Positions 8,905 through 35,867 of a stretch of 54,600 nt of DNA are shown here, piece after piece (position 1 is the stretch's first letter; each line of letters starts with the position of its first letter). Below the pieces are notes generated by a model. That model did no database searches. It saw only the letters and a list, made by a program, of their open reading frames with translations, and was not told the DNA's origin. The stretch is from the IMG/VR virus record IMGVR_UViG_3300009008_000048, positions 1-54,600 of that record; one strand, written 5' to 3'. Source of the stretch: a virus. The position numbers were made by a program, and so were the translations under genes.

Positions 8905-10473
8905 TTATTTTTCTTTATATGGGGCTATTGTTATAGCCGCACCACTTGTTATTAATATACCTGCAGTTGCTACAGAGTTAGTTATTTCATTTTTTACTAC
9001 TTTAAATGGATCTATAATACCCTTTTCAAATAAATCGACATATTCATTATTAAGTGCATCATATCCTTTACCTGTTCTTAATACTTCTCCTATTATTGCA
9101 TCTGCATTTTCTCCCGCATTCTTTAATATTTTTCTCAAAGGCTTATTAAGCGCCTTTAATACTATTTCCTGCCCTGCTACAAATTCTTTACTGCTATCTA
9201 CAATAGCTATATCTTTACCTGCTTTTAATAATGCTATACCTCCACCCTCTACTATACCTTCTTGTATAGCTGAACGAGTAGCATTTAAAGCATCTTCTAT
9301 TCTATATTTAATTTCTGTTTGGTCTGTTTCTGAAGCTCCGCCTACTTTAATATTAGCTATTTGACCATTTAACTTACCAAGCCTTTCTTTTAACTTTTTA
9401 AGTTTAAATGTATCACCCTCTTCTTTTATTAAAGCTTTAACCTCTTCTATATTACCTTTAACATTTCCTTTGCCACCTGAAATAACTGTACTATCTCTAC
9501 CTATAATAACTTTATCACAAGTACCTAACTCATCTGCACCTGCATCTTCTATTTTAATTGATTCTTCTTTTCCTACTACTGTGGCCTCGGTTAATGTAGC
9601 TAAGTCTCTTAATAGATCCCCCTGATAACCGCCAAATGAAGGGTTATTAACAGGAACTATAGTAAACTTACCTAACATATGATTTTGAGCTAAAAATGCT
9701 AATGCTGCGCCTTCTATTTTATTAGCAAACAAAATTGCTTTATTATGCCCTGCTACTATTAATCTTTCTACTATAGGTATTAATTGGTTTGGATTATCTA
9801 TATCATCGCTACATATAATAACTTGTGGGTTTTCTGCTTCATAAGATAACCTTTTAGGATTATTTATAAAAACATGTGATTGATAACCATTATTTAACTC
9901 AATACCTTTAACATATTCCACTTTTGTTTCCATTTCTGAGGAATTAGTTACTGTAACAACACCATCTACACCTATTTTATTAACTACTTCCATAATAAGT
10001 TTACCCACCTTTTCATCGTTATTAGCAGATATAATAGCTGTTTGTAACTTTTCTTTATTGGTTTTTATTTGCTTTGTTTGTTTTTTAAGGTTCTTTAACA
10101 CTAATTGTAGCGCATAATCCATTCCCCTTTTAATTAAAATTGGGTTCATGCCTGCTACTATATATTTATTAGCCTCATTAACCATAGAGGCCAGCAATAC
10201 TACTGTTGAGGTAGTGCCATCACCAGCCTCTCGGTTCGTATTTTCGGCCGCCTCGCGTGTTATCATTACTCCCATATTCTCGAACTTATCCTTTAAGAAT
10301 ATCTGCTGAGCAACCGTGACCCCATCTTTAGTTATAGTTGGATAAGAACTATCTTCAAAGATAACATTTTGCCCTCTCGGACCCAATGTAGTCGATACAG
10401 CGTCTGCTGTTATATTTAAACCCCGTAGGATTTTTTCTCTAGCTTCTTGTCTAAATTTTAATTCTTTATACAT
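8905..10473 (-). CDS. groEL: Phage GroEL-type chaperonin (Hsp60)
   Basis: A 522-residue chaperonin close to the usual 540. It keeps the ATP-binding signatures STTLGPRGQNV, TKDGVTVAQQI and AGDGTTSTVVL, and the signature EDALNATRSAIQEGIVEGGG with the catalytic Asp. The equatorial, intermediate and apical domains are all present. It lacks the GGM-rich C-terminal tail of cellular GroEL and ends IAPYKEK. It forms a pair with the GroES-like gene directly upstream in transcription (2-base gap). It probably folds large virion proteins such as the capsid protein. Sequence divergence from usual cellular forms suggests long phage residence. Confidence 0.95.
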   Translation of the reverse strand: MYKELKFRQEAREKILRGLNITADAVSTTLGPRGQNVIFEDSSYPTITKDGVTVAQQIFLKDKFENMGVMITREAAENTNREAGDGTTSTVVLLASMVNEANKYIVAGMNPILIKRGMDYALQLVLKNLKKQTKQIKTNKEKLQTAIISANNDEKVGKLIMEVVNKIGVDGVVTVTNSSEMETKVEYVKGIELNNGYQSHVFINNPKRLSYEAENPQVIICSDDIDNPNQLIPIVERLIVAGHNKAILFANKIEGAALAFLAQNHMLGKFTIVPVNNPSFGGYQGDLLRDLATLTEATVVGKEESIKIEDAGADELGTCDKVIIGRDSTVISGGKGNVKGNIEEVKALIKEEGDTFKLKKLKERLGKLNGQIANIKVGGASETDQTEIKYRIEDALNATRSAIQEGIVEGGGIALLKAGKDIAIVDSSKEFVAGQEIVLKALNKPLRKILKNAGENADAIIGEVLRTGKGYDALNNEYVDLFEKGIIDPFKVVKNEITNSVATAGILITSGAAITIAPYKEK

Positions 10474-10475
10474 AT

Positions 10476-10727
10476 TTATTCTTTATACTCAGTTATTGCT
10501 ATAATATCTTCCTCTGGTAAAAAGTAAAACCTTTCACCTTGAATTAATAATTCAAATAAGGAATATTTACCAAACACTACTGATTTACCTTTTAAAGAGC
10601 CTTTTAATACTTCACCAGTAATAAGTGCTTTATCTTCGTCTGATTCTTCGATTGCGATATCTACTTTTACTGCAGTATTTTTATGCTTCTTAATTAATAA
10701 AATACCTTCTTTTGGTTCTATTTTCAT
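10476..10727 (-). CDS. groES: GroES-like co-chaperonin
   Basis: An 83-residue protein, slightly shorter than cellular GroES (about 95). The pattern fits the Cpn10 fold: an N-terminal KEGILLIKK strand, a mobile-loop region (KVDIAIEESDEDKA), then ITGEVLKGSLKGKSVVFGKY and the C-terminal FLPEEDIIAITEY strand, comparable to the DILA motif of GroES. It is adjacent to GroEL in the same operon, which strengthens the call. The mobile loop is short and unlike the usual one, consistent with a phage-specific partner. Confidence 0.85.
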   Translation of the reverse strand: MKIEPKEGILLIKKHKNTAVKVDIAIEESDEDKALITGEVLKGSLKGKSVVFGKYSLFELLIQGERFYFLPEEDIIAITEYKE

Positions 10728-10962: not shown

Positions 10963-12990
10963 TTAATTATAATCCCAATCATTAGACATTTTAGGCCTTA
11001 ACAACCCTTCAATATCTTTTTGTATTCGCGTCTTTGGTTTAGGTAGTTTATAAGGAGCATTTGGACGTGTCATAATCATGTATCTTAATGCGTCACAATT
11101 ATGTACTATTACTCCTTGACATGCAAAATTATGAATTCCTTTTACCTCCATATTATATACATATTGCTTTTCCCCTCTTTTTATATCTACTATTTTATGA
11201 TTATACTGTTTCTTTAAAATCGATCTATACTTTTTATAACATTTTAATGAACATGTTTTTGTTGTTGTATACTTATTTATATTAAACTCTTTATTACATA
11301 TGAAGCATTCTCTGTTTATATTATCAATTCCTGAAGCTATTCTGTTTTTAATATAACAAGCACCTGAACAATAAATCCCAGTACCATCTTCTGTTGTAAA
11401 CATTCTTTCACAAACTTTACATTGTTTTTCTTGCCTTCTTTTCTTTCTATTCTCTTCTGACCATGCATTTTTAGCATGTTGTTTATGCCATTTTTTACCT
11501 TCTTCGCTTTTATGCCATGCTTTTGTTAAATGCCTAATACTGTCTAAGTGATTAATACCAGCTATTCGATAATCTTTACGTATCCAATTTTTAATACTTG
11601 CAATACCTAATTTTCGTTTCGTAGTCTTAGAACATTTCCTATTCTTTGAATGTATCGCACAATGATCTGCTCTTGTTAATAATTGTAAATTATCAGGGTT
11701 ATTATTTAACTTATCTTCATTTAAATGATGAATATTCCATTTCCAGCTATCTTCTGGTAATTCGCCTATAATATCTTGATATACTAGTCTATGTGCTGAT
11801 TTTGTACTGCCATTATTTAAATTTATATGTAAATGACCATTACTATCTATGTTTCTATATAAAGGCATTAAACTATCTCCTATTTTAAGTTTACCTGCTT
11901 CTTTATACTCTCCATTTCGTAATAATACTGGATGATCTTCTGTTAATACAAGTTTTTCTTTATTATCTAATATTATTTGTATTGTTTCTCTTTTTCCTGT
12001 TTTAGCAACATTATTGAAAGGAGCTACTGTTATTCTTTCTAATTGCTGACTAAACCCATAAACATGCCCTTTTTTGCCCACTAAATCTTTAATAGCTATA
12101 TCTCCGTCTGTGGTATGTACTATACTACTTCCTATAACACATGCATGATCATCCTTTTTTACTGGTTCTTCACTCATGTTACGTGTTTTTTGTTGCAATT
12201 CAGTTAATTCTTTATACCTGTAATTCTGTAGCTCTGTACATAGGTTTGGACATTTATCACGAAATACATATAAATGCGACTTACTATCTGCATCTAATTG
12301 AAAATATTCTCTTATTCTGTTAATACCAGCTGCAACATCGTTATTTCCACGTTCAAATTCCCATCCATTATCATAAAACTCTTCTACAACAGAGTAAGGT
12401 ATCTCTTCTCCTTCTGTTATTTTAGACCTATTCTTATGACCTGTTGTTGGATCTATAACTCGAATCTGAAAATAAGTGTTTGCTATATCTCTTAACTGTC
12501 GCAAAGATTTACCTTCTATGTTGTCTTTACCCCCTAATAAGTAATCAAAGTGCTGAAACATACTTTTTGATGACTTTGACGGTAGTGCTGCTTCATAATA
12601 CTCATCTATTATATACAATTCTTGGTTTTTTGTCCAAGCACCTACTAAAGCGGCAGTTGGATTTCTCTGTCCAAAATCTAATGCAAGTATTAATTCATAT
12701 GGTTGTTCTAACTCAAAGCTGTTAATAAGGTGTACTTCTGGCTTAAAATCACAGTAATCTGAACCATATATTAACTTACCAGACTTTGTAGCAAAATCTA
12801 TTTCGTATTCTTTATCCCACAGTGCTTTTAATGTACCCTTCTTTTCTCTATCATACCACTTTTTACCTTTTCTTTGTGGGTCTTTTTCAGGATCTGCAGT
12901 ATAATGTAGCATTAAAACAGTGAAACCATTCTTGTTTTCCCACTTTTTAATACCTCTTACTATTGGTTTTTTCTTTATATCGTCGTACAT
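10963..12990 (-). CDS. Terminase large subunit, nuclease half, with an intein
   Basis: A 675-residue frame. Residues 1-283 and 632-675 are the C-terminal RNase H-like nuclease half of TerL: LMLHYTADPEKDP, EYEIDFATKSGKLIYG, first metal Asp in LILALDFGQRNP (D105), IIDEYYEA, and the third Asp in DHA-CDALRYM. Residues 284-631 are an intein inserted between DHA and CDALRY. The ATPase half is a separate gene whose TAA overlaps this ATG by one base. The two halves together align along a usual TerL. Splicing of the intein restores the metal-binding motif needed for DNA cutting during packaging. Confidence 0.9.
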   Translation of the reverse strand: MYDDIKKKPIVRGIKKWENKNGFTVLMLHYTADPEKDPQRKGKKWYDREKKGTLKALWDKEYEIDFATKSGKLIYGSDYCDFKPEVHLINSFELEQPYELILALDFGQRNPTAALVGAWTKNQELYIIDEYYEAALPSKSSKSMFQHFDYLLGGKDNIEGKSLRQLRDIANTYFQIRVIDPTTGHKNRSKITEGEEIPYSVVEEFYDNGWEFERGNNDVAAGINRIREYFQLDADSKSHLYVFRDKCPNLCTELQNYRYKELTELQQKTRNMSEEPVKKDDHACVIGSSIVHTTDGDIAIKDLVGKKGHVYGFSQQLERITVAPFNNVAKTGKRETIQIILDNKEKLVLTEDHPVLLRNGEYKEAGKLKIGDSLMPLYRNIDSNGHLHINLNNGSTKSAHRLVYQDIIGELPEDSWKWNIHHLNEDKLNNNPDNLQLLTRADHCAIHSKNRKCSKTTKRKLGIASIKNWIRKDYRIAGINHLDSIRHLTKAWHKSEEGKKWHKQHAKNAWSEENRKKRRQEKQCKVCERMFTTEDGTGIYCSGACYIKNRIASGIDNINRECFICNKEFNINKYTTTKTCSLKCYKKYRSILKKQYNHKIVDIKRGEKQYVYNMEVKGIHNFACQGVIVHNCDALRYMIMTRPNAPYKLPKPKTRIQKDIEGLLRPKMSNDWDYN
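11098..12141 (-). mobile_element. HNH-containing intein in TerL
   Basis: A 348-residue intein with Cys1 (CVIGSSIVHTTDGD, block A), block B (LVLTEDHPVLLRNGEYKEAG), an HNH nuclease core (WNIHHLNEDKLNNNPDNL), paired cysteine motifs (CKVCERMF, CFICNKEF) and the C-terminal blocks F and G (VYNMEVKGIHNFAC, VHN). The next extein residue is Cys+1. All residues for standard class 1 splicing are present. Boundaries follow from the extein match DHA/CDALRY. It disrupts a nuclease active-site motif. Confidence 0.92.
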
Positions 12991-14987: not shown

Positions 14988-15197
14988 ATGTCAGAATACA
15001 CAGATGCACAAATGTTAGCAGCGGGCAAAAAAGCCCTGGAAGCTAAGGATAGGCAAATTGCCTACGATAAAGTTTACAATTTAGGTAAACGCATCGAGTT
15101 AGCAACCTTACGAGAACATTATGTGCAAGCTGGCGGGTCTTTGGCACAATTAGTAAAGGACTCAAAAGCGGAAGCTATTAAGCAACTAGGCGAATAG
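14988..15197 (+). CDS. Small helical protein, paralogue A (69 aa)
   Basis: A 69-residue helical protein starting MSEYTDAQMLAAGKKALEA, with a purine-rich Shine-Dalgarno (AAAGGGG) before the ATG, one of the clearer ones here. It is a paralogue of the 87-aa protein at 15673, sharing MSEYT, a KALE/KTLE helix and an AYDKVYN / VYDRLYN motif. As the first rightward gene with its own promoter it is probably expressed immediately after infection. It may be a regulator or host-takeover factor; no known family is recognised. Confidence 0.75.
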   Translation: MSEYTDAQMLAAGKKALEAKDRQIAYDKVYNLGKRIELATLREHYVQAGGSLAQLVKDSKAEAIKQLGE

Positions 15198-15672: not shown

Positions 15673-15936
15673 ATGTCAGAATACACTAATGAGCAACTAA
15701 TAGAATTGGGTCGTAAAACACTCGAAACTAGAGAAGCTCAAAAAGTCTATGATAGACTGTATAATGCTCGTATTAAATGGGTAAATCAACAACTGATTGA
15801 TTCTTACAACGAGCTAGCAGATCAGTCATACAATCAACTAGTTCTAGCAAGCAAAGAAATGTCACTGTCAGAGTTGGTTCAAGTAGACCACGAGTGTCGT
15901 GGTTTATCTGCTACTTCTACGGAACTACATGTTTAA
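15673..15936 (+). CDS. Small helical protein, paralogue B (87 aa)
   Basis: An 87-residue protein starting MSEYTNEQLIELGRKTLET, homologous to paralogue A in its first 35 residues (VYDRLYNARIKWV) and then diverging into a longer tail ending GLSATSTELHV. A GGGAAAGGGACAT ribosome site precedes the ATG. The gene has its own promoter, an AT-rich leader, and a strong terminator, so it is a monocistronic unit. Early regulator or host-takeover role is inferred only from position. Confidence 0.75.
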   Translation: MSEYTNEQLIELGRKTLETREAQKVYDRLYNARIKWVNQQLIDSYNELADQSYNQLVLASKEMSLSELVQVDHECRGLSATSTELHV

Positions 15937-17133: not shown

Positions 17134-17283
17134 GTCTCTTTATACAGCCGACTTTACGCCACCAAAGTCACAATCTGCCCGAAGGTTAGCCAATTCCATT
17201 GGTTTCTTTTGGATAGCTTGTCATAGCTATGACTTAATAATTAAGTGATATCTTATGGTATCACAAGGAAAGGTTTTTTCAAT
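17134..17283 (+). promoter_or_regulatory. Structured leader upstream of the Ubl gene
   Basis: In 150 bases there are five dyads: GACTTT/AAAGTC (17150-17169), CCAAT/ATTGG (17190-17202), TCATAGCTATGA (17221-17232), CTTAATAATTAAG (17233-17245) and GTGATA/TATCAC (17245-17264). They are followed by an AAGGAAAGG ribosome site before the ATG at 17284. It looks like a regulated 5' leader or an operator cluster; I could match no known riboswitch class. Confidence 0.55.
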
Positions 17284-17625
17284 ATGAGAAAAACAACAAC
17301 AGAGACTACAGATACTATTTCTGTAGAAGTGGGTCGTTTTAACGAACCAACAAGAGGCATCGACATTGCTGAAGGTGCTACTATTCAAGAAGTAATAAAA
17401 GTATTAGACATTACATTGTCTGATACTGAAACTTTATGGGTAGACGGAGAAAAGGCTGAAGCTAATGATATCGTTGAAAATAACGATAGAATTCAAATCG
17501 TTGGTAAAAAAGAAGGTGGTAATTATGAAGACATTACACCAGAAGTAGAAGTGCCAACAGAAGAAGTTAAAGACGAGGAAGAAACTCCTGCTTTAACCGA
17601 TGAAGATGCTCCAGTTCAAGAATAA
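17284..17625 (+). CDS. Ubiquitin-like (ThiS/MoaD-type) precursor protein
   Basis: A 113-residue protein from the ATG with a good ribosome site (GTG at 17245 is in frame but has none). Residues 10-79 follow a beta-grasp pattern: strands TISVEVGRFN, DIAEGATIQEVIKVLDI helix, ETLWVDGEKAEANDIVENND and RIQIVGKKEGG. The GG at 78-79 corresponds to the mature C-terminus of ThiS/ubiquitin-like modifiers. A 34-residue acidic tail (to PVQE) follows, so a protease must remove it before activation. The JAMM protease, E1-like and E2-like genes follow directly. The nearest known cassettes are PRTRC and BIL-type operons. Confidence 0.8.
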   Translation: MRKTTTETTDTISVEVGRFNEPTRGIDIAEGATIQEVIKVLDITLSDTETLWVDGEKAEANDIVENNDRIQIVGKKEGGNYEDITPEVEVPTEEVKDEEETPALTDEDAPVQE

Positions 17626-17634
17626 ACAAATTAT

Positions 17635-17666
17635 AGAGGGTTAAGGAGACTTAGCCCTCTTTTTTT
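17635..17666 (+). terminator. Terminator between Ubl and E2-like genes
   Basis: An AGAGGG/CCCTCT stem extended by TTAA/TTAG pairing, followed by seven Ts. It lies 10 bases after the Ubl stop. Read-through would feed the downstream enzymes, so it likely makes the modifier more abundant than its enzymes. Confidence 0.8.
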
Positions 17667-17688: not shown

Positions 17689-18810
17689 ATGATAAAAGTA
17701 GAAAAGAAAAAAGAAAAAAAAGAAAAAAAGGAGAAAAAGGTCGAAAAATTAGAAACTATTTACTACGGAGATGAAATAGTTACTACAGATAAATGTATCT
17801 TAGGAGAAGGTAAAAAAGGAATAGTAAGAGTAAAAAAGTTAGACTTCTTTGGTATAGAATTTAAGGATATAGTCTTAGATAAGGAGTTACCAAAGAATGA
17901 GCAGCTTCATAATATCAGTAGTGTATTACAGAAAAATGAAGGGTATATGTTATCTAGAGACGAATTTAAGGTAATCAATAGAAAAGAATATGATGATAAG
18001 ACTAAAGAGAGATTAGTTAATATTCTCAAAGAACAAGGGTTTAATGATTTTCATGAACTACCAAAGACCATAGCATCTATCAAAGATAGTATAGGGTATG
18101 CTACTTCTAGAATACATGAAATGACACAAGATGTGAGAAGAACAAATAAAGATAAAGACCTAAATATATTAAAACTAAAAGAATTAGAAAGTAAAACTTT
18201 AGAATTTGATTATTCACAAGCAGAAAATGTTTTTAATAAGATATCTGGTAATAAGAAAGTTCATAAGTTTTCTATTACTGATAACTATTTAGTTATAACG
18301 ACCAAAAATCTTACATACAGCCAGAATGTTTCAGAGCTACCAGACTTTGATTTAGGTAGATTTAAGATATTTATACCTATTAACGATCCTAATAAAAGTA
18401 TAAAAGCAGTTAATATATCCAGACATCTAAGCAAAGGATACTATGGACATCCTTGTTTAGAAAACTCATTAAATATTTGTATGGGTCTTGATGTATCTGA
18501 CGTTGTTCATAATTATAAAAATAGCGGAGACTATTACGGACTTGTTTTAGTTTTAATAAACTTCTTTGAACAACCAGACTATGGAGAGCCTTATAGAAAA
18601 GACTATGAGTTTTATTGTGCTCAAGATATTGACATACATGATGAAATAAAAGATGAAGAAGACTGGTTAAGTAGAGATATATTGGCTAAATCTTCTTGGG
18701 ACGAAGAACAATTCTTAAAGGATTTAACTAACATTAAAGAACAAATTGATGTAGATATAGACAGATGCGGGAACTGTGATAACTACATAGACGAATGTTC
18801 ATGCGAATAA
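17689..18810 (+). CDS. E2-like (ubiquitin-conjugating-type) protein with C-terminal zinc motif
   Basis: A 373-residue protein from the ATG at 17689. The N-terminus is a Lys/Glu stretch. Residues about 200-305 resemble the prokaryotic E2/PRTRC-B fold: FKIFIPINDPNKSIKAV, then HPCLENSLNICMGLD with Cys256 and Cys264, then a helix (YYGLVLVLINFF). In bacterial E2s an HPH..CLG-type motif carries the catalytic cysteine; here HPC and ICMG fit, with Cys264 the better candidate. The C-terminus has CGNC..CSC, a possible zinc knuckle. Position between Ubl and JAMM/E1 genes supports an E2 role. Sequence similarity is low, so this is the least certain of the four enzymes. Confidence 0.7.
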   Translation: MIKVEKKKEKKEKKEKKVEKLETIYYGDEIVTTDKCILGEGKKGIVRVKKLDFFGIEFKDIVLDKELPKNEQLHNISSVLQKNEGYMLSRDEFKVINRKEYDDKTKERLVNILKEQGFNDFHELPKTIASIKDSIGYATSRIHEMTQDVRRTNKDKDLNILKLKELESKTLEFDYSQAENVFNKISGNKKVHKFSITDNYLVITTKNLTYSQNVSELPDFDLGRFKIFIPINDPNKSIKAVNISRHLSKGYYGHPCLENSLNICMGLDVSDVVHNYKNSGDYYGLVLVLINFFEQPDYGEPYRKDYEFYCAQDIDIHDEIKDEEDWLSRDILAKSSWDEEQFLKDLTNIKEQIDVDIDRCGNCDNYIDECSCE

Positions 18811-18820
18811 TAAAAAAATT

Positions 18821-19654
18821 ATGGATTTAATTATTACAAAAGAAGCATATCTTAAGCTCAAGTATTATATTGGGCTTGTAGATACTGAAATTTCTGGTAT
18901 GGGTAAAAGCCATATCGACAAGGACGGAGATATAATACTGTCAGACGTTATTATATTTCATCAAGAAGTCTCTGGGTCTAGCACGGATTTAGATGAAGCA
19001 TCAATGGCTAAGTTTTTATCTGAGCTAATGAAAAAGGGGGAAAAGACAGAGGAATGGAATGTTTGGTGGCACAGTCATGCAGACATGGATGTATTTTGGT
19101 CTTCTACAGATGATGATACAATAGCAGAACATTGTAATCACCAGAGTCATCTAATAAGTTTAGTTGGAAATAGAAAAGGCAAGTTCAAAGCTCGTTTAGA
19201 TTTATTTCCTAAAGATACTTCACCTTTTAATTACCAAGAAATACATTACAAGGAAGATGTAGATGTAAAAATAGAGGAAGACGATAGTAATACAGATGCT
19301 ATAGACAAGTTAGAAGACGCTATAGAGAAGGCATATCAAAAAATAGATAAGTATAAAGGTAAGAGCGATCCTGCTATACAAAAGGCTTGTCAAAAGGAAA
19401 TAGACGACAAGGTAACGGAGTATGTTGTCCCCAACAAAGTCACTAACAAATGGTCATGGACTGGTGATAATCAAGATGCTATAACTTATGACAATCAAGA
19501 TTGGAATGGTAGTCATTATAAAAATTATTACGATGATTATTATGGTGGCTATGAAATATGTATTGATTGTGGATATACACTAGAACAATGTGCTAAAAAC
19601 AAACAATGTCCTACATCAGAAGAAAATGATTCATTATTAAAATTAAACATATGA
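18821..19654 (+). CDS. JAMM/JAB metalloprotease (deubiquitinase-like)
   Basis: A 277-residue protein with an intact JAMM motif: Glu23 in DTEISGMG, then H84-S-H86, seven residues, S94-x2-D97 (HSHADMDVFWSSTD). These bind zinc and activate water in the JAB/MPN+ family. The C-terminal part is acidic and ends with a cysteine cluster (CIDCGYTLEQCAKNKQC) that may bind zinc. The gene lies between the E2-like and E1-like genes and overlaps the latter by ATGA. Likely roles are maturing the Ubl precursor at its GG and/or removing it from targets. Confidence 0.88.
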   Translation: MDLIITKEAYLKLKYYIGLVDTEISGMGKSHIDKDGDIILSDVIIFHQEVSGSSTDLDEASMAKFLSELMKKGEKTEEWNVWWHSHADMDVFWSSTDDDTIAEHCNHQSHLISLVGNRKGKFKARLDLFPKDTSPFNYQEIHYKEDVDVKIEEDDSNTDAIDKLEDAIEKAYQKIDKYKGKSDPAIQKACQKEIDDKVTEYVVPNKVTNKWSWTGDNQDAITYDNQDWNGSHYKNYYDDYYGGYEICIDCGYTLEQCAKNKQCPTSEENDSLLKLNI

Positions 19655-20280
19655 CAAATGAAAGACACAAGAGGTCATTAGATATAATTGACCCAGACAA
19701 ATTAGACTTTCCAATTCATATATTGGGAGTAGGAGGCATAGGAAGCTGGACTGCCCTAATCTTAGCCAAGATGGGAGCTTTAGATATTACTGTATATGAC
19801 GATGACGTAGTAGAAGACCATAATGTAGCTTCTCAATTTTACAAAGAAAGCCAATTAGGAGAAGAAAAGACAAAGGCTTTGGCTGATAATGTTTCAGAAC
19901 AGACAGGTGTTAAAATATTACCTATGCCTATATCAGGAGAAAGAAATATAAAAAAAGGTATAGTTATTATTGCTATAGATTCTATGGAAAGACGTCATAA
20001 AATAGCTGATAAATTAGAATATAGTATAAATTGGATAATAGATGGTCGTATGGGAGGCACACAATTTGAGATATATAGTCAACAAACAGAACTATATAAA
20101 GAAACTTTAGTAAATCCAGATGATGTTCATCCAGATGCCTGCACAGCGAAAGCTATAAGTTTCAATTGTTCTGTTATAGCAGGTATGATAGCTAATTATA
20201 TTAGATTATATGCTGATGGTAATAGAGATAAACACGCTATCACCTTTGGCTTTAACGATGTTGAATTATTAAAAGAATAA
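19651..20280 (+). CDS. ThiF/E1-like adenylyltransferase
   Basis: A 209-residue minimal E1-like protein: the nucleotide-binding motif GVGGIGSW (residues 26-32), YDDDVVEDHNVASQF with the conserved Asp and Asn, a K in GEEKTKAL, AIDSMERR, the DGRMGG turn, and a DACTAK motif whose Cys164 may accept the Ubl. It lacks the extra domains of eukaryotic E1s, as is usual for PRTRC and BIL-type ThiF proteins. It would adenylate the Gly-Gly end of the Ubl. It is translationally coupled to the JAMM gene. Confidence 0.88.
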   Translation: MTNERHKRSLDIIDPDKLDFPIHILGVGGIGSWTALILAKMGALDITVYDDDVVEDHNVASQFYKESQLGEEKTKALADNVSEQTGVKILPMPISGERNIKKGIVIIAIDSMERRHKIADKLEYSINWIIDGRMGGTQFEIYSQQTELYKETLVNPDDVHPDACTAKAISFNCSVIAGMIANYIRLYADGNRDKHAITFGFNDVELLKE

Positions 20281-29030: not shown

Positions 29031-29405
29031 ATGAGATTAAAAGTACAACATTTCTTTGATGCTAGTCATCAGTTACCAGACTCAGATGATTTAGTAACAA
29101 AGGCCTGTGCAACGATGCACGGCCACACTTACAAAGTTGTCGTGGACATAGAAGGAGAGAATAACAGGGGCGGAATGGTTGTAGATTTCAAAGCTGTTAA
29201 ACAAATAATAGATATATTTGACCATCAACACATTAATAAAGTATTAGATGAAAATCACTTTAAAGGTGAGGCTACTGCAGAAAATATGGCAATATTTCTA
29301 TTTAATAAAATAAAGGTCGATCTAAAATTAAACGTAAAAGGTGTTGCTGTATGTGAGGGCTATAAAGGAGAAGACAAAGCTTCGTGGGCAATTTATAATG
29401 GATAA
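29031..29405 (+). CDS. queD: QueD, 6-carboxytetrahydropterin synthase
   Basis: A 124-residue protein of the PTPS/QueD family. Zinc ligands are His13 (DASHQL), His30 and His32 in ATMHGH; catalytic Cys26 lies in KACATMHGH, the CxxxHGH motif that marks QueD. Also present are GMVVDFKAVK, FDHQHINKV and an EGYKGE end. It converts dihydroneopterin triphosphate to 6-carboxytetrahydropterin, the second step to preQ0. QueE, QueC, GTP cyclohydrolase I and QueF follow within five kilobases. Confidence 0.92.
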   Translation: MRLKVQHFFDASHQLPDSDDLVTKACATMHGHTYKVVVDIEGENNRGGMVVDFKAVKQIIDIFDHQHINKVLDENHFKGEATAENMAIFLFNKIKVDLKLNVKGVAVCEGYKGEDKASWAIYNG

Positions 29406-29688
29406 TATGAAACATTTATTAAGTGCGGGTGATTATTATATTTTTTCTGGTAAATTTCAGTATACCGTTAAGAAGTTTGAAAACTTTTTAGACAATGGTG
29501 AAAGAGAGTATAGTGATCCAACATATCATACAACATTAATATCTGCACTAGAAGAATTAAACGAACGAATTAAAAAAGATAAGTTTACTAAATGTAAAGA
29601 TATTAAAGACATTATAACTCAACAAAAAGCAATAAACAAACAATTTTTAAAAGATATGAAAAAATATGAGAATAGCAAAAATGCCTAA
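29398..29688 (+). CDS. Hypothetical protein between queD and queE (96 aa)
   Basis: Starts within the queD stop region (ATG at 29398 or 29407). It has KHLLSAGDYYIFSGKFQYTVKKFENF and a helical, basic C-terminus (KAINKQFLKDMKK). It overlaps queE by 23 bases. No pathway enzyme matches; it may be an accessory or an unrelated small insert. Confidence 0.6.
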   Translation: MDNMKHLLSAGDYYIFSGKFQYTVKKFENFLDNGEREYSDPTYHTTLISALEELNERIKKDKFTKCKDIKDIITQQKAINKQFLKDMKKYENSKNA

Positions 29689-30397
29689 CGGCGAACCCGA
29701 GATATATGTTGCTGTACAAGGAGAAGGTAAGACAATAGGTGTACCATCTGTATTTGTAAGGTTATCGGGATGCAACTTACACTGTAAATGGTGTGACACA
29801 GCATATACTTGGAACTTTGAAAACACTCCATGGAAACATGATATAGAGGATAAACATAAAATAGATGAAATGCAATATGAAATAAGTGTTAAAAAGGTAG
29901 TAAAGAAAATTAAAGAAATAGCTCCACCTAATAAAAATGTAGTTTTCACAGGTGGTGAACCATTATTACAACAAGTAGAATTGTGGCAAGTAATGAAAGA
30001 ATTTAGTAACGATTGGACATTTGAAATAGAAACTAATGGCACTATAGAGTTTAACAAACAATTACTTCATAATGTGCTTGTTAATTGTAGTCCTAAGTTA
30101 GCTAATTCAGGTAATGATATAAACAAGCGATTAAACTATGATGTGTTGAACGCCATTAAAGTCGCTAATAGTATATTCAAATTTGTAATAGATGGTGAAG
30201 AGAGTTTAGCAGAAGTAGAAAAAATAGTTGAACAATTACAAATACCAAGAAACAAAATTTATTTAATGCCAGAAGGTATTGAAACAAATGATATTATAAA
30301 TGGAACTAGAGCACTATCTATTATATGTGCAGAACGAGGGTGGAATTTAAGTACTCGTCTACAAGTGATATTATATAATACAAAAAGAGCAGTTTAA
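29666..30397 (+). CDS. queE: QueE, 7-carboxy-7-deazaguanine synthase (radical SAM)
   Basis: A 243-residue radical-SAM enzyme. The cluster motif is SGCNLHCKWCDTAYTW (Cys36, Cys40, Cys43; the CxxxCxxC form of QueE). Substrate motifs VAVQGEGKTIG and VFTGGEPLLQ and ETNGTIE are also present. It converts 6-carboxytetrahydropterin to CDG. The start overlaps the previous gene; a short A-rich leader precedes the ATG. Confidence 0.93.
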   Translation: MRIAKMPNGEPEIYVAVQGEGKTIGVPSVFVRLSGCNLHCKWCDTAYTWNFENTPWKHDIEDKHKIDEMQYEISVKKVVKKIKEIAPPNKNVVFTGGEPLLQQVELWQVMKEFSNDWTFEIETNGTIEFNKQLLHNVLVNCSPKLANSGNDINKRLNYDVLNAIKVANSIFKFVIDGEESLAEVEKIVEQLQIPRNKIYLMPEGIETNDIINGTRALSIICAERGWNLSTRLQVILYNTKRAV

Positions 30398-30417
30398 TCA
30401 ATTAACATAAAAAAATT

Positions 30418-30654
30418 ATGCCTCCAGTAAAAGGAAAAAAGAACCCTAATATGGCTCGTAAAGGTAAAGATAACGGGCGATGGAAGGGCGGTAAGTCTTC
30501 AGATTATAGACGTAGAATTACCAACGCTAAAAAAGGTGAAGTGGTACACCATAAAGACCACAACAAAGCTAATAATACTAAATCTAATTTAAAGAAATTA
30601 TCTTCTATAGGTGCTCATAATAAAGCACATCCAGAGAAAGGAGGAAGACACTAA
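30418..30654 (+). CDS. Small HNH homing endonuclease-like protein (78 aa)
   Basis: Residues 36-70 (NAKKGEVVHHKDHNKANNTK then SNLKKL..HNKAH) match the HNH core of phage homing endonucleases (HH..DHN..N). The N-terminal half has NGRWKGGKSSDY, a DNA-binding linker common to this family. It sits between queE and queC, splitting the pathway genes, and probably inserted itself there. Confidence 0.8.
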   Translation: MPPVKGKKNPNMARKGKDNGRWKGGKSSDYRRRITNAKKGEVVHHKDHNKANNTKSNLKKLSSIGAHNKAHPEKGGRH

Positions 30655-30888
30655 ATGATTAAAGCAAAAGAACAATGGGTAGATGTTGAAATGGTAGATA
30701 TATGTTTTGATAACAACGAACAAAATATGGCTTTAATTAAATTCGATGATTTATTAGATCTTAATATGTACTTAGAACATGCTCAGAATGTAAAAAAAGT
30801 AAAGCTATTAACAGAGGGTAACCTATGGAAACTTAAAACAGTTTACTATGTGTTAGTGGACTATAAGGAGGAATACCAAAATGAGTAA
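30655..30888 (+). CDS. Hypothetical protein upstream of queC (77 aa)
   Basis: A 77-residue alpha/beta protein (KEQWVDVEMVDICFDNNEQN, DDLLDLNMYLEHAQNV). It starts one base after the HNH stop and overlaps queC by eight bases. No recognised family. Confidence 0.55.
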   Translation: MIKAKEQWVDVEMVDICFDNNEQNMALIKFDDLLDLNMYLEHAQNVKKVKLLTEGNLWKLKTVYYVLVDYKEEYQNE

Positions 30889-31591
30889 TGGCAAAGCACT
30901 AGTTATACTCTCGGGGGGTATGGACAGTACTACATTATTACATGATGTAGCTAATGGATATGCTGTACCAAGCATACTGGCATTAACTTTTGATTATGGT
31001 TCTAAACATAATAAAAAAGAGATAAGACAAGCTAAATATAATTGTAAAGTTTTAGGAATAGAACATATAATTATAAGAATGCAAGATGTATTTAAACACT
31101 TTAAATCTTCTTTATTAGAATCGGGAGATGATATACCAGAAGGACATTATAAAGATAGCAGTATGAAATCTACAGTAGTACCTTTTAGAAATGGTATATT
31201 ATTATCTATAGCAGCAGGTATAGCAGAATCTAAAAGTATTAGTAAAGTATTTTATGGTGCTCATGCAGGCGACCATGCTATATATCCAGATTGTACAGAT
31301 GAATTTGCACATAAGTTTAATGAGGCCACTCAGTTAGGTACTTATAATAATGTAGAAATATATGCACCTTACGAGGGTAAGAACAAGATAGATATAATTA
31401 AAAAAGGTATTGCTATAGGTGTTGATTATGGACATACTTGGACTTGTTATAAAGGCAAAGAGAATCCATGTGGTAAATGTGGTAGCTGTGTAGAACGTAC
31501 CGAAGCATTTATTAAAAATGATTTGAAAGATCCCTTATACACAGATAAACAATGGAAAGAAGCTGTAGAATTTTACAATAAATCTAAATAA
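30881..31591 (+). CDS. queC: QueC, 7-cyano-7-deazaguanine (preQ0) synthase
   Basis: A 236-residue ATP-dependent enzyme. The PP-loop motif LSGGMDSTTLLH (residues 10-21), DYGSKHNKKE and VVPFRNGILLSIA match QueC; the C-terminal CGKCGSCVERTEAF carries the zinc cysteines. It converts CDG to preQ0 with ammonia and ATP. An AAGGAGGA ribosome site precedes the ATG. A strong hairpin lies just downstream. Confidence 0.94.
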   Translation: MSNGKALVILSGGMDSTTLLHDVANGYAVPSILALTFDYGSKHNKKEIRQAKYNCKVLGIEHIIIRMQDVFKHFKSSLLESGDDIPEGHYKDSSMKSTVVPFRNGILLSIAAGIAESKSISKVFYGAHAGDHAIYPDCTDEFAHKFNEATQLGTYNNVEIYAPYEGKNKIDIIKKGIAIGVDYGHTWTCYKGKENPCGKCGSCVERTEAFIKNDLKDPLYTDKQWKEAVEFYNKSK

Positions 31592-31597
31592 ACTAAT

Positions 31598-31655
31598 TCC
31601 CCCTCTTTAACAGGGCAGATAACCCCCTTTCCTGTCTGCTCTGTTATGGGGGGGC
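31598..31655 (+). other. Strong GC-rich hairpin after queC
   Basis: An 11-bp stem (AACAGGGCAGA with TCTGCTCTGTT, one G-U pair) is extended outward by CCCCC/GGGGG pairing across the gap. No T-run follows, so it is a processing or attenuator structure more than a terminator. PreQ1 riboswitch class I features (short stem plus A-rich tail over a ribosome site) were not seen. Confidence 0.55.
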
Positions 31656-31666
31656 AATAATGTAGT

Positions 31667-31810
31667 ATGAAAAAAACACACAATAAACTTTTAAAAAAAT
31701 ATAACAGCTTTTTTAATTATGCAGAAGTACCTCATCTAAAAAGTATACCTTATCTAATATTTTCTTGTATATATGTGATTGGTATATATTTATTTTTAAA
31801 AAATTTATGA
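31667..31810 (+). CDS. Small membrane protein (47 aa)
   Basis: An ATG at 31667 opens 47 codons: a basic N-terminus (MKKTHNKLLKKY), then a transmembrane helix (IPYLIFSCIYVIGIYLFL) and a short tail. It ends in an ATGA overlap with the next gene. Function unknown. Confidence 0.55.
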   Translation: MKKTHNKLLKKYNSFFNYAEVPHLKSIPYLIFSCIYVIGIYLFLKNL

Positions 31811-32082
31811 TAGATATACAAATATATAGCAAAGGTAAAAATATATTCTACAGACAGAATATGCATTGGAAACAAGCACACGCTTGGCTGTATGAAAAAG
31901 AAAGTAAGAATAAAGAATTTGATAAAATAGATATACAGTTACATAGCAGCCAGGATATGCCTGTAGATGATGTAGAAGATTTAATAACTTTTAATGCTGC
32001 CCATACTTGGATAGCTACTAGTTTAACTAAGGCCAAAAATGGGTATTATGATTTTATATTGAATCCCCATAAAGGTCACTAA
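31807..32082 (+). CDS. Hypothetical protein (91 aa)
   Basis: Starts at the ATGA overlapping the small membrane gene (an earlier in-frame start at 31765 lies inside that gene). It has MIDIQIYSKGKNIFYRQ and DMPVDDVEDLITFNAAHTW, with many aromatics. No family recognised. Its place between queC and the GTP cyclohydrolase gene suggests the same transcript. Confidence 0.6.
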   Translation: MIDIQIYSKGKNIFYRQNMHWKQAHAWLYEKESKNKEFDKIDIQLHSSQDMPVDDVEDLITFNAAHTWIATSLTKAKNGYYDFILNPHKGH

Positions 32083-32102
32083 GATAATTAACAATAAAAA
32101 AA

Positions 32103-32669
32103 ATGCAAGATCAAACAAAACTTAAAAAAATAGCCGAAGAATTATTAAAGGAAATAGGTGATAATCCAAAAAGAATTGGGCTAAAAGATACACCTAAGCG
32201 TATGGCTAATATGTGGCAAGAGGTATTTAAAGGATACAATAGAAAACAAATGCCTGTAGTAACAGTATTTCCTAACAACGATGATGGTATTGTTTATGAT
32301 CAAATAGTAACTGATGAAGGTAAGTTTCATTCACACTGTGAACATCACATGGCTGTATTTTACGGCGATTATTACTTTGGTTATATACCAGATAAACATA
32401 TTATAGGCTTATCTAAAATAGCTAGATTAATAGAATATTTCGCCTCTAGATTACAGGTACAAGAAAGATTAGGTGCTAACATAGTAGATTACCTAGAAAA
32501 GAAATTACAACCAAAAGGTATTATACTTATAATGAAAGCACATCATACTTGTAAGGAAGCTAGGGGTGTTAAAAAAGAAGGCATAATGACAACCTCTGTA
32601 GTAAGGGGAGTATTTGCTAATGACGCATCCGCTAAAGAAGAGTTTTTATCATTAATTAACACTAAATAG
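32103..32669 (+). CDS. folE: GTP cyclohydrolase I (FolE)
   Basis: A 188-residue enzyme, usual length. Signatures: [18 protein letters not shown], the zinc and active-site motif FHSHCEHHM (Cys79, His81, His82), [29 protein letters not shown] and [11 protein letters not shown] with the second zinc cysteine. It makes dihydroneopterin triphosphate from GTP, the first step to both folate and 7-deazaguanine; here the neighbours show it feeds QueD. It ends one base before the queF start. Confidence 0.95.
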
Positions 32670-32670
32670 T

Positions 32671-34122
32671 ATGAGCGACAAATTAAAATCCCTTGGTAGT
32701 GGTAAAACTACCTACGAGTTCAAAAAAGAAGCACAACCAGAACTATTAGAATCTTTTACTAATAAACATCCTGGAGAAGATTATCTAATACCATTTAATA
32801 TGGAACGTGATGAGTTCACTTCATTGTGTGTATCAGGAGATACAAAAATAGATGTTGTTGGCAAAGATTTTCAAGGTAACATTAAAATAAAAGATTTAGT
32901 AGGCAAAACTGGTTATGCTTATTCATACTCTAACATAGAAAAAAGAATAGTATTACGTAAATTTAGTGATGTAAGAAAAACACAAAAAGATGCTGAATTA
33001 ATTGAAATTGAATACATAAATAAAAAAGGTAAAAAGTTTACATTAAAGCTAACAAAAGAACATCCTGTTATGTTACATAATGGAATATTTATTCCTGCCA
33101 GTGAATTAAACGAAAATGATAGTATTATGAGTTTCGGTAAATATACAATAAAAGGATATACTAATTTACATGATAAGAAAAATTATTATGCAGAACATAA
33201 ATTTATAGCAAAAGAATTACAAATTGATAATGAAATTATACATCATAAAAATCACAACAAACTGGATAACTGTTTAAATAATTTACTTCCTATGACATTA
33301 TCTAAACACAATCAACATCATAGATATAAACAATATAAGTATGAAGGAAAAATAACAAAAAAAATATTAGAACAAAAGTATTTAAAAGAATTAGAAACTA
33401 TAAGTAATATTGCTAGATATTTTAAATGTGATGATTCTACTATTTTTAATAGACTAATTAGATACAATATTCCTATAAGAACTAAAAAAGAAATATACGC
33501 TATTCAAAAAACACCTAACAAGATTAAAAAAAATATCGACCAAGTTATTAAATGGTATAAACAAGGATATTTATTATCTGAAATTGCAAGTGTGTTTAAT
33601 TGTCATAGTACAACAGTAAGTTCATGGCTTAAAGATGCGGGTGTTAAAATAAAAGAAAGCAATATTCAAAGATATAGTAGAAAAAAATTGTTGTTACCTG
33701 AATTAAATCACAAGATTGTTTCTATAAAATCAATACCTAAAGAAGATGTATATAATATGGAAGTACAAGATACTAATAACTTTGTAGCCAATGAAGCCGT
33801 ATTACATAATTGTCCTATGACAGGGCAACCAGACCAAGCACGTATGGAGATAGTATATGTGCCCAACAATAAATGTGTGGAATCTAAATCATTAAAACTA
33901 TATTTAATGTCTTACCGTATGTCTGGTGAGTTCCACGAAGATGTATGCAACAGAATAGCAAATGATTTATTTAATTTATTAGAACCTAAATACTTAAGAG
34001 TATATGGTGATTTTAGCCCTAGAGGTGGAATTGCTATAAGACCTATAGTACAACGCTGGGGTCATAGTTGGGTTGATAATAATATTATAAATCTAGTTAA
34101 TATGTGGGATATAAAGAAATGA
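32671..34122 (+). CDS. queF: QueF (preQ0 reductase), interrupted by an intein
   Basis: A 483-residue frame. Residues 1-52 and 381-483 join to a 155-residue QueF of the short YkvM type: [22 protein letters not shown], with the catalytic Cys and the Asp seven residues on, then [23 protein letters not shown] and FSPRGGIAI. It reduces preQ0 to preQ1 with NADPH. Residues 53-380 are an intein whose Cys+1 is the catalytic cysteine, so no activity is possible before splicing. It overlaps the DpdA-like gene by ATGA. PreQ1 would be the base offered to that enzyme. Confidence 0.93.
32827..33810 (+). mobile_element. HNH intein inserted at the QueF catalytic cysteine
   Basis: A 328-residue intein. Block A starts [13 protein letters not shown]; block B is [16 protein letters not shown]; the HNH core is [21 protein letters not shown]; helix-turn-helix segments follow ([34 protein letters not shown]); blocks F and G are [14 protein letters not shown] and LHN. 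The two DNA-binding helix-turn-helix units are unusual additions that may guide target recognition. Extein junctions FTSL/CPMTG are exact. It is related in type, not in close sequence, to the TerL intein. Confidence 0.93.
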
Positions 34123-35138
34123 TACATAACAAATTTAACTTATTCTTCGCTGTAGCAGCTAAACAGTTCATGGAGTATGTGCTTACTTGTAATGTTAAGC
34201 ATATACTAATATCTTTTGCATACAAAGAACCGTGGCAAATGAAAGAACTGCTAAAGCGTAACAATGTAGATATTTTACTAGATAGTGGAGCATTCACAGC
34301 ATGGAACCAAGCACAGAAAAAGAAACAAGAAGGTAATACTAACTGGGAAAAGTACTTAATTGATATAGACGAATATGCTGCTTTTATGGAAGAGCATAAA
34401 GATATAATATGGCGTGCTGTAAACTTAGATGTTATTCCTGGAGAACAAGGTAAAGAACCTACAAAAGAACAATATATAGAATCAGCAGAACAAGGTTGGA
34501 AGAACTACTTGTACTTAAAAGAAAAAGGCTTTAATACTATTCATGTATTTCATCAAGGCGAACCATTAAAATATCTTACTCAAATGATAGATGGTGGCTG
34601 TGATTATATAGGTATAAGTCCTAATAACGATTACAGTGATAAAAAGAAAATGCTATGGCTTGATAGGGCATTTAGGCATATTAAAAATTCTAGTAATCCT
34701 GCAATTAAAACTCATGGCTTTGGTGTTACATCTAACGCCCTTATAGACAGGTATCCTTGGTTTAGCTGTGATAGTGCAGCTTATTGCTTATCAGCCGCTC
34801 TAGGCACTGTAGCAACGCCCTATGGCAAGGTTAATACCAGTGATAGAGATACAACAGATGCTAAACACATAGAGCAAAAACCAGCAATGGTTCAAAAGCA
34901 TATAGATGATTACCTAAAAAAGGAAATAGGCTATGGTTTAGGGTCTATGACCAAAACAGTAGAAGAACATAAGTTCGCATGCTCTAATTGTGATTACGAA
35001 ATAACAACACCTATTAAAATACAGGCTTACAAGGCTAGGAATTTTGCTAATATAGTCCACTTAATGAATAAGGAAAAAGAAATACAAGATAACCCAGAAC
35101 CTAATATGAGATTTGATGCTCAAAAAACATTATTATAA
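34119..35138 (+). CDS. dpdA: DpdA-like DNA deazaguanine transglycosylase
   Basis: A 339-residue protein from the ATGA overlap with queF (GTG at 34104 is weaker). It has TGT-superfamily motifs: [11 protein letters not shown] (Asp55), [10 protein letters not shown] (Asp104), VFHQGEP, IGISPNN, and [25 protein letters not shown]-terminal CSNCDYEI may be part of a zinc site. Phage DpdA proteins exchange guanine in DNA for 7-deazaguanine bases. The adjacent pathway suggests preQ0 or preQ1 as substrate. A clearly related domain is inside the giant virion protein at 35836-43185. Confidence 0.82.
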
Positions 35139-35500: not shown

Positions 35501-35867
35501 ACCTAGATTTAGGCGTTGTGGGTCATTTGTAAATACTTATGATACTGCTAAGGCGGACAAGGAAGTTGTTCAACAAATAGTAAAACTTAAATATAAACCG
35601 AGTATTATAAAACCACCAATTAAAATGAAACTGGTGGCTTATATGCCTATTCCTAAATCTTTATCTAATAAAAAGAAAGAGGAGTTATTAGGCGAGTATC
35701 ATACTAAACGCCCTGATTTAGATAATATTGTTAAGTTTTATAAGGATGCTTTAGAGGGTATATGCTATAAAGATGATAGCCACATAAGTCACGAAGTATC
35801 TAAAAAGGTTTATGACAAAAACCCTAGAGTAGAAATTACCTTTCTAAGTCTTTGTAAAGATCTATAA
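35439..35867 (+). CDS. rusA: RusA-type Holliday junction resolvase
   Basis: A 142-residue RusA: EITIPGKPKAQPRPRFRR at the start, then HTKRPDLDNIVKFYKDAL (Asp93, Asp95 and the catalytic Asp cluster) and YKDDSHISHEV (Asp112/113). These Asp residues bind magnesium. It resolves junctions during replication or before packaging. It is the last rightward gene; its 3' end overlaps the convergent giant gene by 32 bases. Confidence 0.9.
   Translation: MNTTESIIEITIPGKPKAQPRPRFRRCGSFVNTYDTAKADKEVVQQIVKLKYKPSIIKPPIKMKLVAYMPIPKSLSNKKKEELLGEYHTKRPDLDNIVKFYKDALEGICYKDDSHISHEVSKKVYDKNPRVEITFLSLCKDL

What the first reader, a model, noticed from the sequence alone, without database searches (positions are those of the whole stretch)
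17284..17625. Ubl precursor with a cleavable 34-residue acidic tail after GG
The modifier ends at Gly78-Gly79 followed by an acidic Pro/Glu/Thr tail, unlike ThiS/MoaD, which end at GG. This implies proteolytic maturation, and the JAMM gene is two positions downstream. A precursor of this kind is closer to eukaryotic-style modifiers.
Basis: partly seen in the sequence, partly recalled or inferred. Interest (0 to 1): 0.7.

Follow-up and report, generated by a model that had tools for sequence, protein, structure and literature searches.

The report
Phage ubiquitin-like precursor with removable tail
This virus of bacteria carries a complete four-gene ubiquitin-like tagging kit whose tag protein is made with extra residues after its reactive glycine end, so it probably has to be trimmed by the kit's own protease before use, and distant viral relatives show the same layout.

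Summary
ORF 17284-17625 encodes 113 residues: a beta-grasp (ubiquitin-like) domain, Gly78-Gly79, then 34 acidic residues (net -13). The next genes are an E2-fold protein with a conserved Cys, a JAMM protease with an intact motif, and a ThiF-type E1. Relatives were found in about 37 viral and bacterial loci. In 35 profile-matched, non-redundant Ubls, a Gly sits at or beside the window's G78-G79, the two C-terminal glycines of ThiS and SAMP2. 32 of the 35 do not end in Gly: they carry further residues (GG-R, GG-KI, GG-NK, KG-N, KG-NA, up to 34), including tandem di-Ubls with KG-N at both repeat ends. Long tails share no sequence. The one GG-ended Ubl whose genome yielded no JAMM has no tail. JAMM maturation of a phage pro-Ubl before E1/E2 conjugation is the best reading, though no cleavage was tested. 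'Closer to eukaryotic modifiers' is not supported: sequence points to SAMP2/ThiS, and JAMM-matured precursors are already known in archaea (CsUb/CsRpn11) and bacteria (BilA/BilC). What looks new is a widespread phage-borne version with Gly-Asn ends and polyubiquitin-like tandems.

The parts
17245..17264 (+). small perfect inverted repeat GTGATA-N8-TATCAC just upstream of the ribosome-binding-like site
   Evidence: read directly; function unknown
17265..17273 (+). AAGGAAAGG, Shine-Dalgarno-like site for the ATG at 17284
   Evidence: sequence
17284..17625 (+). Ubl precursor gene (113 aa)
   Evidence: relatives aligned; profile hit within own genome E=2.5e-26
17314..17505 (+). beta-grasp (ubiquitin-like) domain, residues 11-74
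   Evidence: AlphaFold2 model; Foldseek to SUMO, CsUb, SAMP1 at E about 2e-4; profile to SAMP2 3e-6 and ThiS 1.6e-4
17515..17520 (+). Gly78-Gly79, aligned with the terminal GG of ThiS/SAMP2; predicted reactive C-terminus
17521..17622 (+). 34-residue acidic tail, predicted to be disordered and removed
   Evidence: relatives carry unrelated tails of 1-24 residues
17635..17660 (+). strong intrinsic-terminator-like hairpin plus T run between the Ubl gene and the E2 gene
   Evidence: RNA fold -21.8 kcal/mol, z = -7.1
17689..18810 (+). E2-like (ubiquitin-conjugating fold) protein, 373 aa; putative catalytic Cys264 (codon 18478-18480), C-terminal Cys cluster
   Evidence: Cys invariant in 16-17 aligned sequences; all top 50 VIA-align matches are E2s, Z up to 8.5 over 123 residues
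18821..19654 (+). JAMM/JAB metalloprotease, 277 aa; motif HSHADMDVFWSSTD at residues 84-97 (19070-19111), upstream Glu23
   Evidence: family profile to RPN11 1.3e-9, CSN5 6.6e-5, JAMM1 1.2e-3
19651..20280 (+). ThiF/MoeB-type E1 adenylating enzyme, 209 aa; invariant Cys164 (codon 20140-20142)
   Evidence: Pfam ThiF 4.7e-19; invariant G26 G28 D50 K73 D110 R133 C164

Best explanation
A phage-encoded protein-tagging module. The Ubl is translated as an inactive precursor. The JAMM protease encoded two genes downstream cuts after the conserved glycine, most likely G79|N80 in the window, and discards the disordered acidic tail. The E1 then adenylates the exposed glycine and passes it, probably as a thioester through Cys164, to Cys264 of the E2, which attaches it to amino groups of phage or host proteins. 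The same JAMM can later remove it. The tail works as a cap that prevents use before processing, as in pro-ubiquitin and pro-SUMO. Shown here: gene set, motifs, fold predictions, position of GG, and the comparative tail pattern. Inferred: cleavage, its exact bond, thioester transfer, conjugation and targets.
For: Complete adjacent gene set Ubl, E2, JAMM, E1. Gly at G78's column in 25 of 25 aligned Ubl domains. In a wider set of 35, 32 proteins do not end in Gly, so most members of this family would need trimming. Fourteen have GG at the ThiS-terminal position; twelve of these carry a tail of 1, 1, 1, 1, 1, 2, 2, 2, 2, 3, 22 or 34 residues. The two tail-less ones are a Xanthomonas phage in which no JAMM was found and a Nitrospinae locus. 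Long tails share no sequence: acidic in the window, lysine-rich in L016, basic in L040, as expected for a discarded cap. Tandem di-Ubls have KG-[N/S] at both repeat ends, like polyubiquitin precursors. The last strand ends at residue 74 and GG lies in an exposed flexible stretch. Precedents: CsRpn11 cuts CsUb precursor precisely after Gly-Gly, removing nine residues (PMC6043591); BilC exposes BilA's C-terminal glycine (PMC11354881).
Against: No biochemical evidence. L030 and L036 (JAMM present) have Ubls ending in bare Gly (KGG*, KAG*), so JAMM is not kept only for maturation. In the KG-N class the residue at ThiS's terminal-Gly position is Asn, and six proteins end exactly at that column with Asn or Ala, so either the mature end is one residue shorter or a non-Gly end is used; this leaves the window's exact bond (G78|G79 or G79|N80) uncertain. 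The E2 assignment rests on a moderate model (mean pLDDT 68), and sequence profile searches did not find E2s in PDB or Pfam. The window's E2 has HPC where most relatives have HPH.
Confidence: 0.7

Rival explanations
1. The tail is permanent and functional: the Ubl acts as a non-conjugated adaptor, or the acidic tail binds a partner, and the JAMM acts only elsewhere.
For: The tail is the most acidic C-terminus of the 69 ORFs examined. Crassvirales relatives carry a Ubl domain followed by a conserved 130-200 residue extension after ..KKIKSG, which looks like a real domain rather than a disposable tail.
Against: Tails in nearer relatives are mostly 1-3 residues and unrelated in sequence. Gly is invariant right at the tail junction. 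A complete E1/E2/JAMM set is present in nearly every locus.
Confidence: 0.13
2. The module is a sulfur-carrier system: the Ubl is thiocarboxylated by E1 like ThiS/MoaD and feeds a sulfur-transfer reaction, for example on the phage's 7-deazaguanine products; JAMM trims the carrier.
For: The Ubl family is nearest to ThiS and SAMP2. The phage carries preQ0-type genes. In known bacterial systems JAB proteins accompany ThiS-like carriers without E2 (PMC1779556).
Against: An E2-fold protein with an invariant Cys is found in nearly all related loci. No rhodanese, ThiG or MoaE gene was seen next to the operon.
Confidence: 0.1
3. Maturation is done by a host protease or is autocatalytic, and the JAMM serves only to remove Ubl from targets.
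For: JAMM is retained where the Ubl already ends in Gly (L030, L036).
Against: JAMM lies in the same operon in almost every case. The precedent CsRpn11 does both jobs and BilC matures BilA. No other protease was seen in these operons.
Confidence: 0.12

Closest known systems
Caldiarchaeum subterraneum pro-ubiquitin (CsUb) and Rpn11 homologue (PMC6043591)
   Same: beta-grasp modifier with Gly-Gly followed by a short tail, cut by a cognate JAMM; E1 and E2 encoded together
   Different: archaeal chromosome; tail of nine residues against 34; the operon also has a RING E3, none recognised here; modifier sequence closer to eukaryotic ubiquitin
Bacterial BilABCD antiphage operon (via review PMC11354881)
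   Same: Ubl, E2, JAMM and E1 in one operon; the DUB exposes the Ubl's C-terminal glycine before activation
   Different: BilA has two Ubl domains while the window's has one; BilD has paired adenylation domains and a Cys domain while this E1 is 209 aa; Bil defends against phage while this one is encoded by a phage
SAMP2 and JAMM1 of archaea; ThiS of bacteria
   Same: best sequence matches of the Ubl family; the GG coincides with their terminal GG
   Different: the ThiS and SAMP2 chains aligned end at GG without a tail; SAMP conjugation in archaea needs no E2 (PMC11354881)
Prokaryotic Ubl/E1/E2/JAB operon types 6a-6e and phage lambda TAPI/TAPK (PMC1779556)
   Same: JAB was predicted there to cut Ubls at the C-terminal-most glycine, including a phage tail-assembly Ubl; multi-Ubl proteins are described there too
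   Different: TAPI lies in tail-assembly genes without E1/E2; the 6a-6e types are bacterial operons, and no Pfam E2 family matches these proteins
Crassvirales gene block (crAss001 gp79-gp76, DAC15)
   Same: same order Ubl-domain protein, E2-like, JAMM, E1
   Different: Ubl domain ends ..KSG and is followed by a long conserved extension; annotated only as hypothetical, metalloprotease, ThiF; the E2-like assignment there was not tested by structure

Membership tests
Prokaryotic Ubl-E1-E2-JAMM conjugation operon | beta-grasp Ubl with C-terminal Gly motif | tested here: met
Prokaryotic Ubl-E1-E2-JAMM conjugation operon | ThiF-type E1 with ATP-site residues and invariant Cys | tested here: met
   Pfam 4.7e-19; invariant residues including C164
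Prokaryotic Ubl-E1-E2-JAMM conjugation operon | E2 fold with catalytic-type Cys | tested here: met
   all top 50 VIA-align rows are E2s, Z up to 8.5; Cys invariant; model confidence moderate; sequence profile search negative
Prokaryotic Ubl-E1-E2-JAMM conjugation operon | JAMM motif E...HxH(x)7SxxD | tested here: met
   HSHADMDVFWSSTD and Glu23; RPN11 1.3e-9
Prokaryotic Ubl-E1-E2-JAMM conjugation operon | Ubl is conjugated to proteins | not testable with these tools
   needs biochemistry
BilABCD | BilA with two Ubl domains | tested here: not met
   single domain, residues 11-74
BilABCD | BilD with inactive plus active adenylation domains and Cys domain | tested here: not met
   E1 is 209 aa, one ThiF domain
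BilABCD | antiphage defence in a bacterial genome | tested here: not met
   window is a virus record with terminase and structural genes; no PADLOC match except a partial CBASS E1-E2 match of the E1
ThiS/MoaD sulfur carriers | protein ends at GG | tested here: not met
   34 residues follow GG
ThiS/MoaD sulfur carriers | sulfur-transfer partners nearby (ThiG, MoaE, rhodanese) | tested here: not met
   none seen next to the operon
Pro-ubiquitin type precursor (CsUb, eukaryotic pro-Ub/SUMO) | residues after GG removed by a cognate protease | not testable with these tools
   tail and JAMM are present; cleavage needs an assay
Lambda TAPI Ubl | lies in tail-assembly genes beside TAPK | tested here: not met
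   lies among E1/E2/JAMM and replication-type genes

The most novel reading that the evidence does not exclude
A widespread, largely undescribed class of phage-borne ubiquitin-like conjugation systems in which the tag is nearly always encoded as a capped precursor (single Ubl with a tail, or polyubiquitin-like di-Ubl), matured by the phage's own JAMM and used to tag host or phage proteins during infection. A large subgroup conjugates through a single Gly, with Asn taking the place of the usual terminal glycine.
Probability: 0.45. Interest if true: 0.82.

Novelty: new variant of a known kind. Interest (0 to 1): 0.6.

Why it matters
Ubiquitin-like conjugation in bacteria is known mainly as an anti-phage weapon (Bil, CBASS E1/E2). 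A complete module in phages, with counterparts in culturable Crassvirales and Flavobacterium phages, would mean phages also tag proteins, and the tail gives a simple test: precursor cleavage at one glycine. The tandem KG-N proteins suggest that polyubiquitin-like precursors occur in phages.

Tried and rejected
tblastn of the Ubl and of the E2 against phage records found nothing, and single-protein scans of viral contigs mostly failed; profile and E1-based searches solved this. Alignments of all E1s or JAMMs were too divergent to scan with. 'GG is just a chance dipeptide' was rejected: it falls on the ThiS/SAMP2-terminal columns. 'Homologues lack GG' was first suggested by L002, L004 and L011, then corrected when L041-L057 were found. 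A strict rule 'tail if and only if JAMM' was rejected because L030 and L036 have JAMM with a Gly-ended Ubl. A sequence search of PDB with the E2 profile gave only DARPin noise, and plain Foldseek was weak; the VIA-align comparison resolved it. Plasmid records gave no match to the L011 E1. No Rfam or tRNA feature in the window. Papers found do not describe a complete phage-encoded module, but only an open-licence library was searched, and the primary Bil papers were not held.

Full report
What is there. The window is a 54.6-kb virus record. ORF 17284-17625 encodes 113 residues: a Ubl domain, Gly78-Gly79 and 34 further residues with net charge -13. The ORF starts with ATG behind AAGGAAAGG and is followed directly by a strong terminator-like hairpin at 17635-17660 (z = -7.1). 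The Ubl may thus be transcribed separately from, and in excess of, its enzymes (inference). Then come an E2-like gene (17689-18810), a JAMM gene (18821-19654) and an E1 gene (19651-20280).

The parts. Ubl: single-sequence Pfam hits are weak, but a profile of relatives matches SAMP2 (3e-6) and ThiS (1.6e-4) in PDB, ending on their last residue. AlphaFold2 gives a beta-grasp for residues 11-74 with everything after it disordered; Foldseek finds SUMO, CsUb and SAMP1. JAMM: full motif with Glu23, His84, His86, Ser94 and Asp97; the family profile matches RPN11 at 1.3e-9. E1: ThiF 4.7e-19, with ATP-site residues and Cys164 invariant in the first eight homologues. E2: no Pfam or PDB sequence match, but a Cys in a G-H-P...C-x-G context is invariant among relatives, and all fifty best structural matches are E2 enzymes, Z up to 8.5 over 123 residues. 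This is a complete Ubl, E1, E2, JAMM set without a recognised E3.

Relatives. E1- and JAMM-based scans gave L002, L011-L031 and L035-L057, and phage records gave crAss001, DAC15, FpV4, Dulem, bajarodcaudo and PhiXhv-12. Ubl genes were found by profile in 35 non-redundant loci including the window, and two more by eye (L048 ..SGGGMSTNVHIV, L056 ..AGGLKGAR). Gene order varies. Profile scores for L035, L042 and L051 are weak and rest partly on operon position.

The C-terminal pattern. Two profile columns (83-84) align with the terminal GG of ThiS and SAMP2. Column 83 is Gly in 32 of the 35; the other three end ..AG..AGLVA and ..AGRE and were not aligned through that column. Column 84 is Gly in 14 (including the window), Asn or Ser in 15, and Ala in 3. 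Of the 14 GG proteins, 12 continue: R (five times), KI, NK, AR, IR, NVS, a 22-residue basic tail (L040) and the window's 34 residues. Of the Asn/Ser group, five end there, seven one residue later, one two residues later, L023 adds 21 and L016 adds 24 lysine-rich residues. Seven loci have two Ubl domains in tandem, each ending KG-N or KG-S. Only 3 of 35 proteins end in Gly: PhiXhv-12, where two searches found no JAMM (the first profile also missed one known JAMM, so this is suggestive only), the Nitrospinae locus L030, and L035/L036. So most Ubls in these operons cannot be activated by an E1 as translated, if a free C-terminal Gly is required as in characterised Ubl systems (established knowledge).

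Mechanism. The simplest account is maturation by the operon's JAMM, then activation and transfer. It has direct precedents: CsRpn11 cuts CsUb precursor precisely after Gly-Gly and also removes CsUb from conjugates (PMC6043591); BilC exposes BilA's glycine (PMC11354881); and Iyer et al. predicted JAB processing of prokaryotic Ubls including a phage one (PMC1779556). The freedom of tail length and charge argues that the tail is a cap. The exact bond in the window is open: G79 equals the ThiS end, while G78 equals the only Gly in the KG-N class. The module lies beside replication and recombination genes here and in Crassvirales, which suggests early or middle expression (inference); targets are unknown.

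Limits. No cleavage, thioester or conjugate was tested. The sample was collected by similarity to a few E1s and one JAMM pair and is not a census. The E1 tree is weakly resolved around the window (nearest L055, L039, L041), so independent gains of tails cannot be counted. Only an open-licence library was searched for prior reports.

Verdict. Observation confirmed; maturation reading likely; eukaryotic affinity not supported. It is a phage variant of the known prokaryotic Ubl conjugation operons, interesting because it appears widespread and because of the Gly-Asn and tandem forms.

Noticed in passing
L018 8761-9270, L020 8718-9182, L022 8752-9240, also L023-L026: Tandem di-Ubl proteins with KG-N or KG-S at the end of each repeat, resembling polyubiquitin precursors, in JAMM/E1/E2 operons of viral contigs.
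   Followed up: partly
L003 3926-8333 (crAss001 gp79-gp76), also L005-L009: Crassvirales and Flavobacterium phages carry the same four-gene order; the Ubl-domain protein has a long C-terminal extension after ..KSG, and the Ubl and E2-like genes are annotated as hypothetical.
   Followed up: partly
window 17635-17660: Very stable terminator-like hairpin separates the Ubl gene from its enzymes, suggesting separate, higher expression of the modifier.
   Followed up: partly
window 29031-35138: QueD, QueE, QueC, FolE, QueF (with an intein) and a queuine tRNA-ribosyltransferase-like gene: a preQ0 / 7-deazaguanine cassette.
   Followed up: partly
window 35836-43185 (-): 2449-aa ORF contains a segment resembling the transglycosylase-like protein at 34119-35138 (LIIDSGAFTTWN against [12 protein letters not shown]), so a second copy may sit inside a giant virion-type protein.
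   Followed up: no
window 10963-12990 (-): Large terminase-type gene interrupted by an intein with an HNH endonuclease.
   Followed up: partly
window 8905-10727 (-): Phage-encoded GroEL (Cpn60, 2.7e-57) and a GroES-like gene next to the structural block.
   Followed up: partly
window 14988-15197 and 15673-15936: Two paralogous small ORFs beginning MSEYT upstream of the operon.
   Followed up: no
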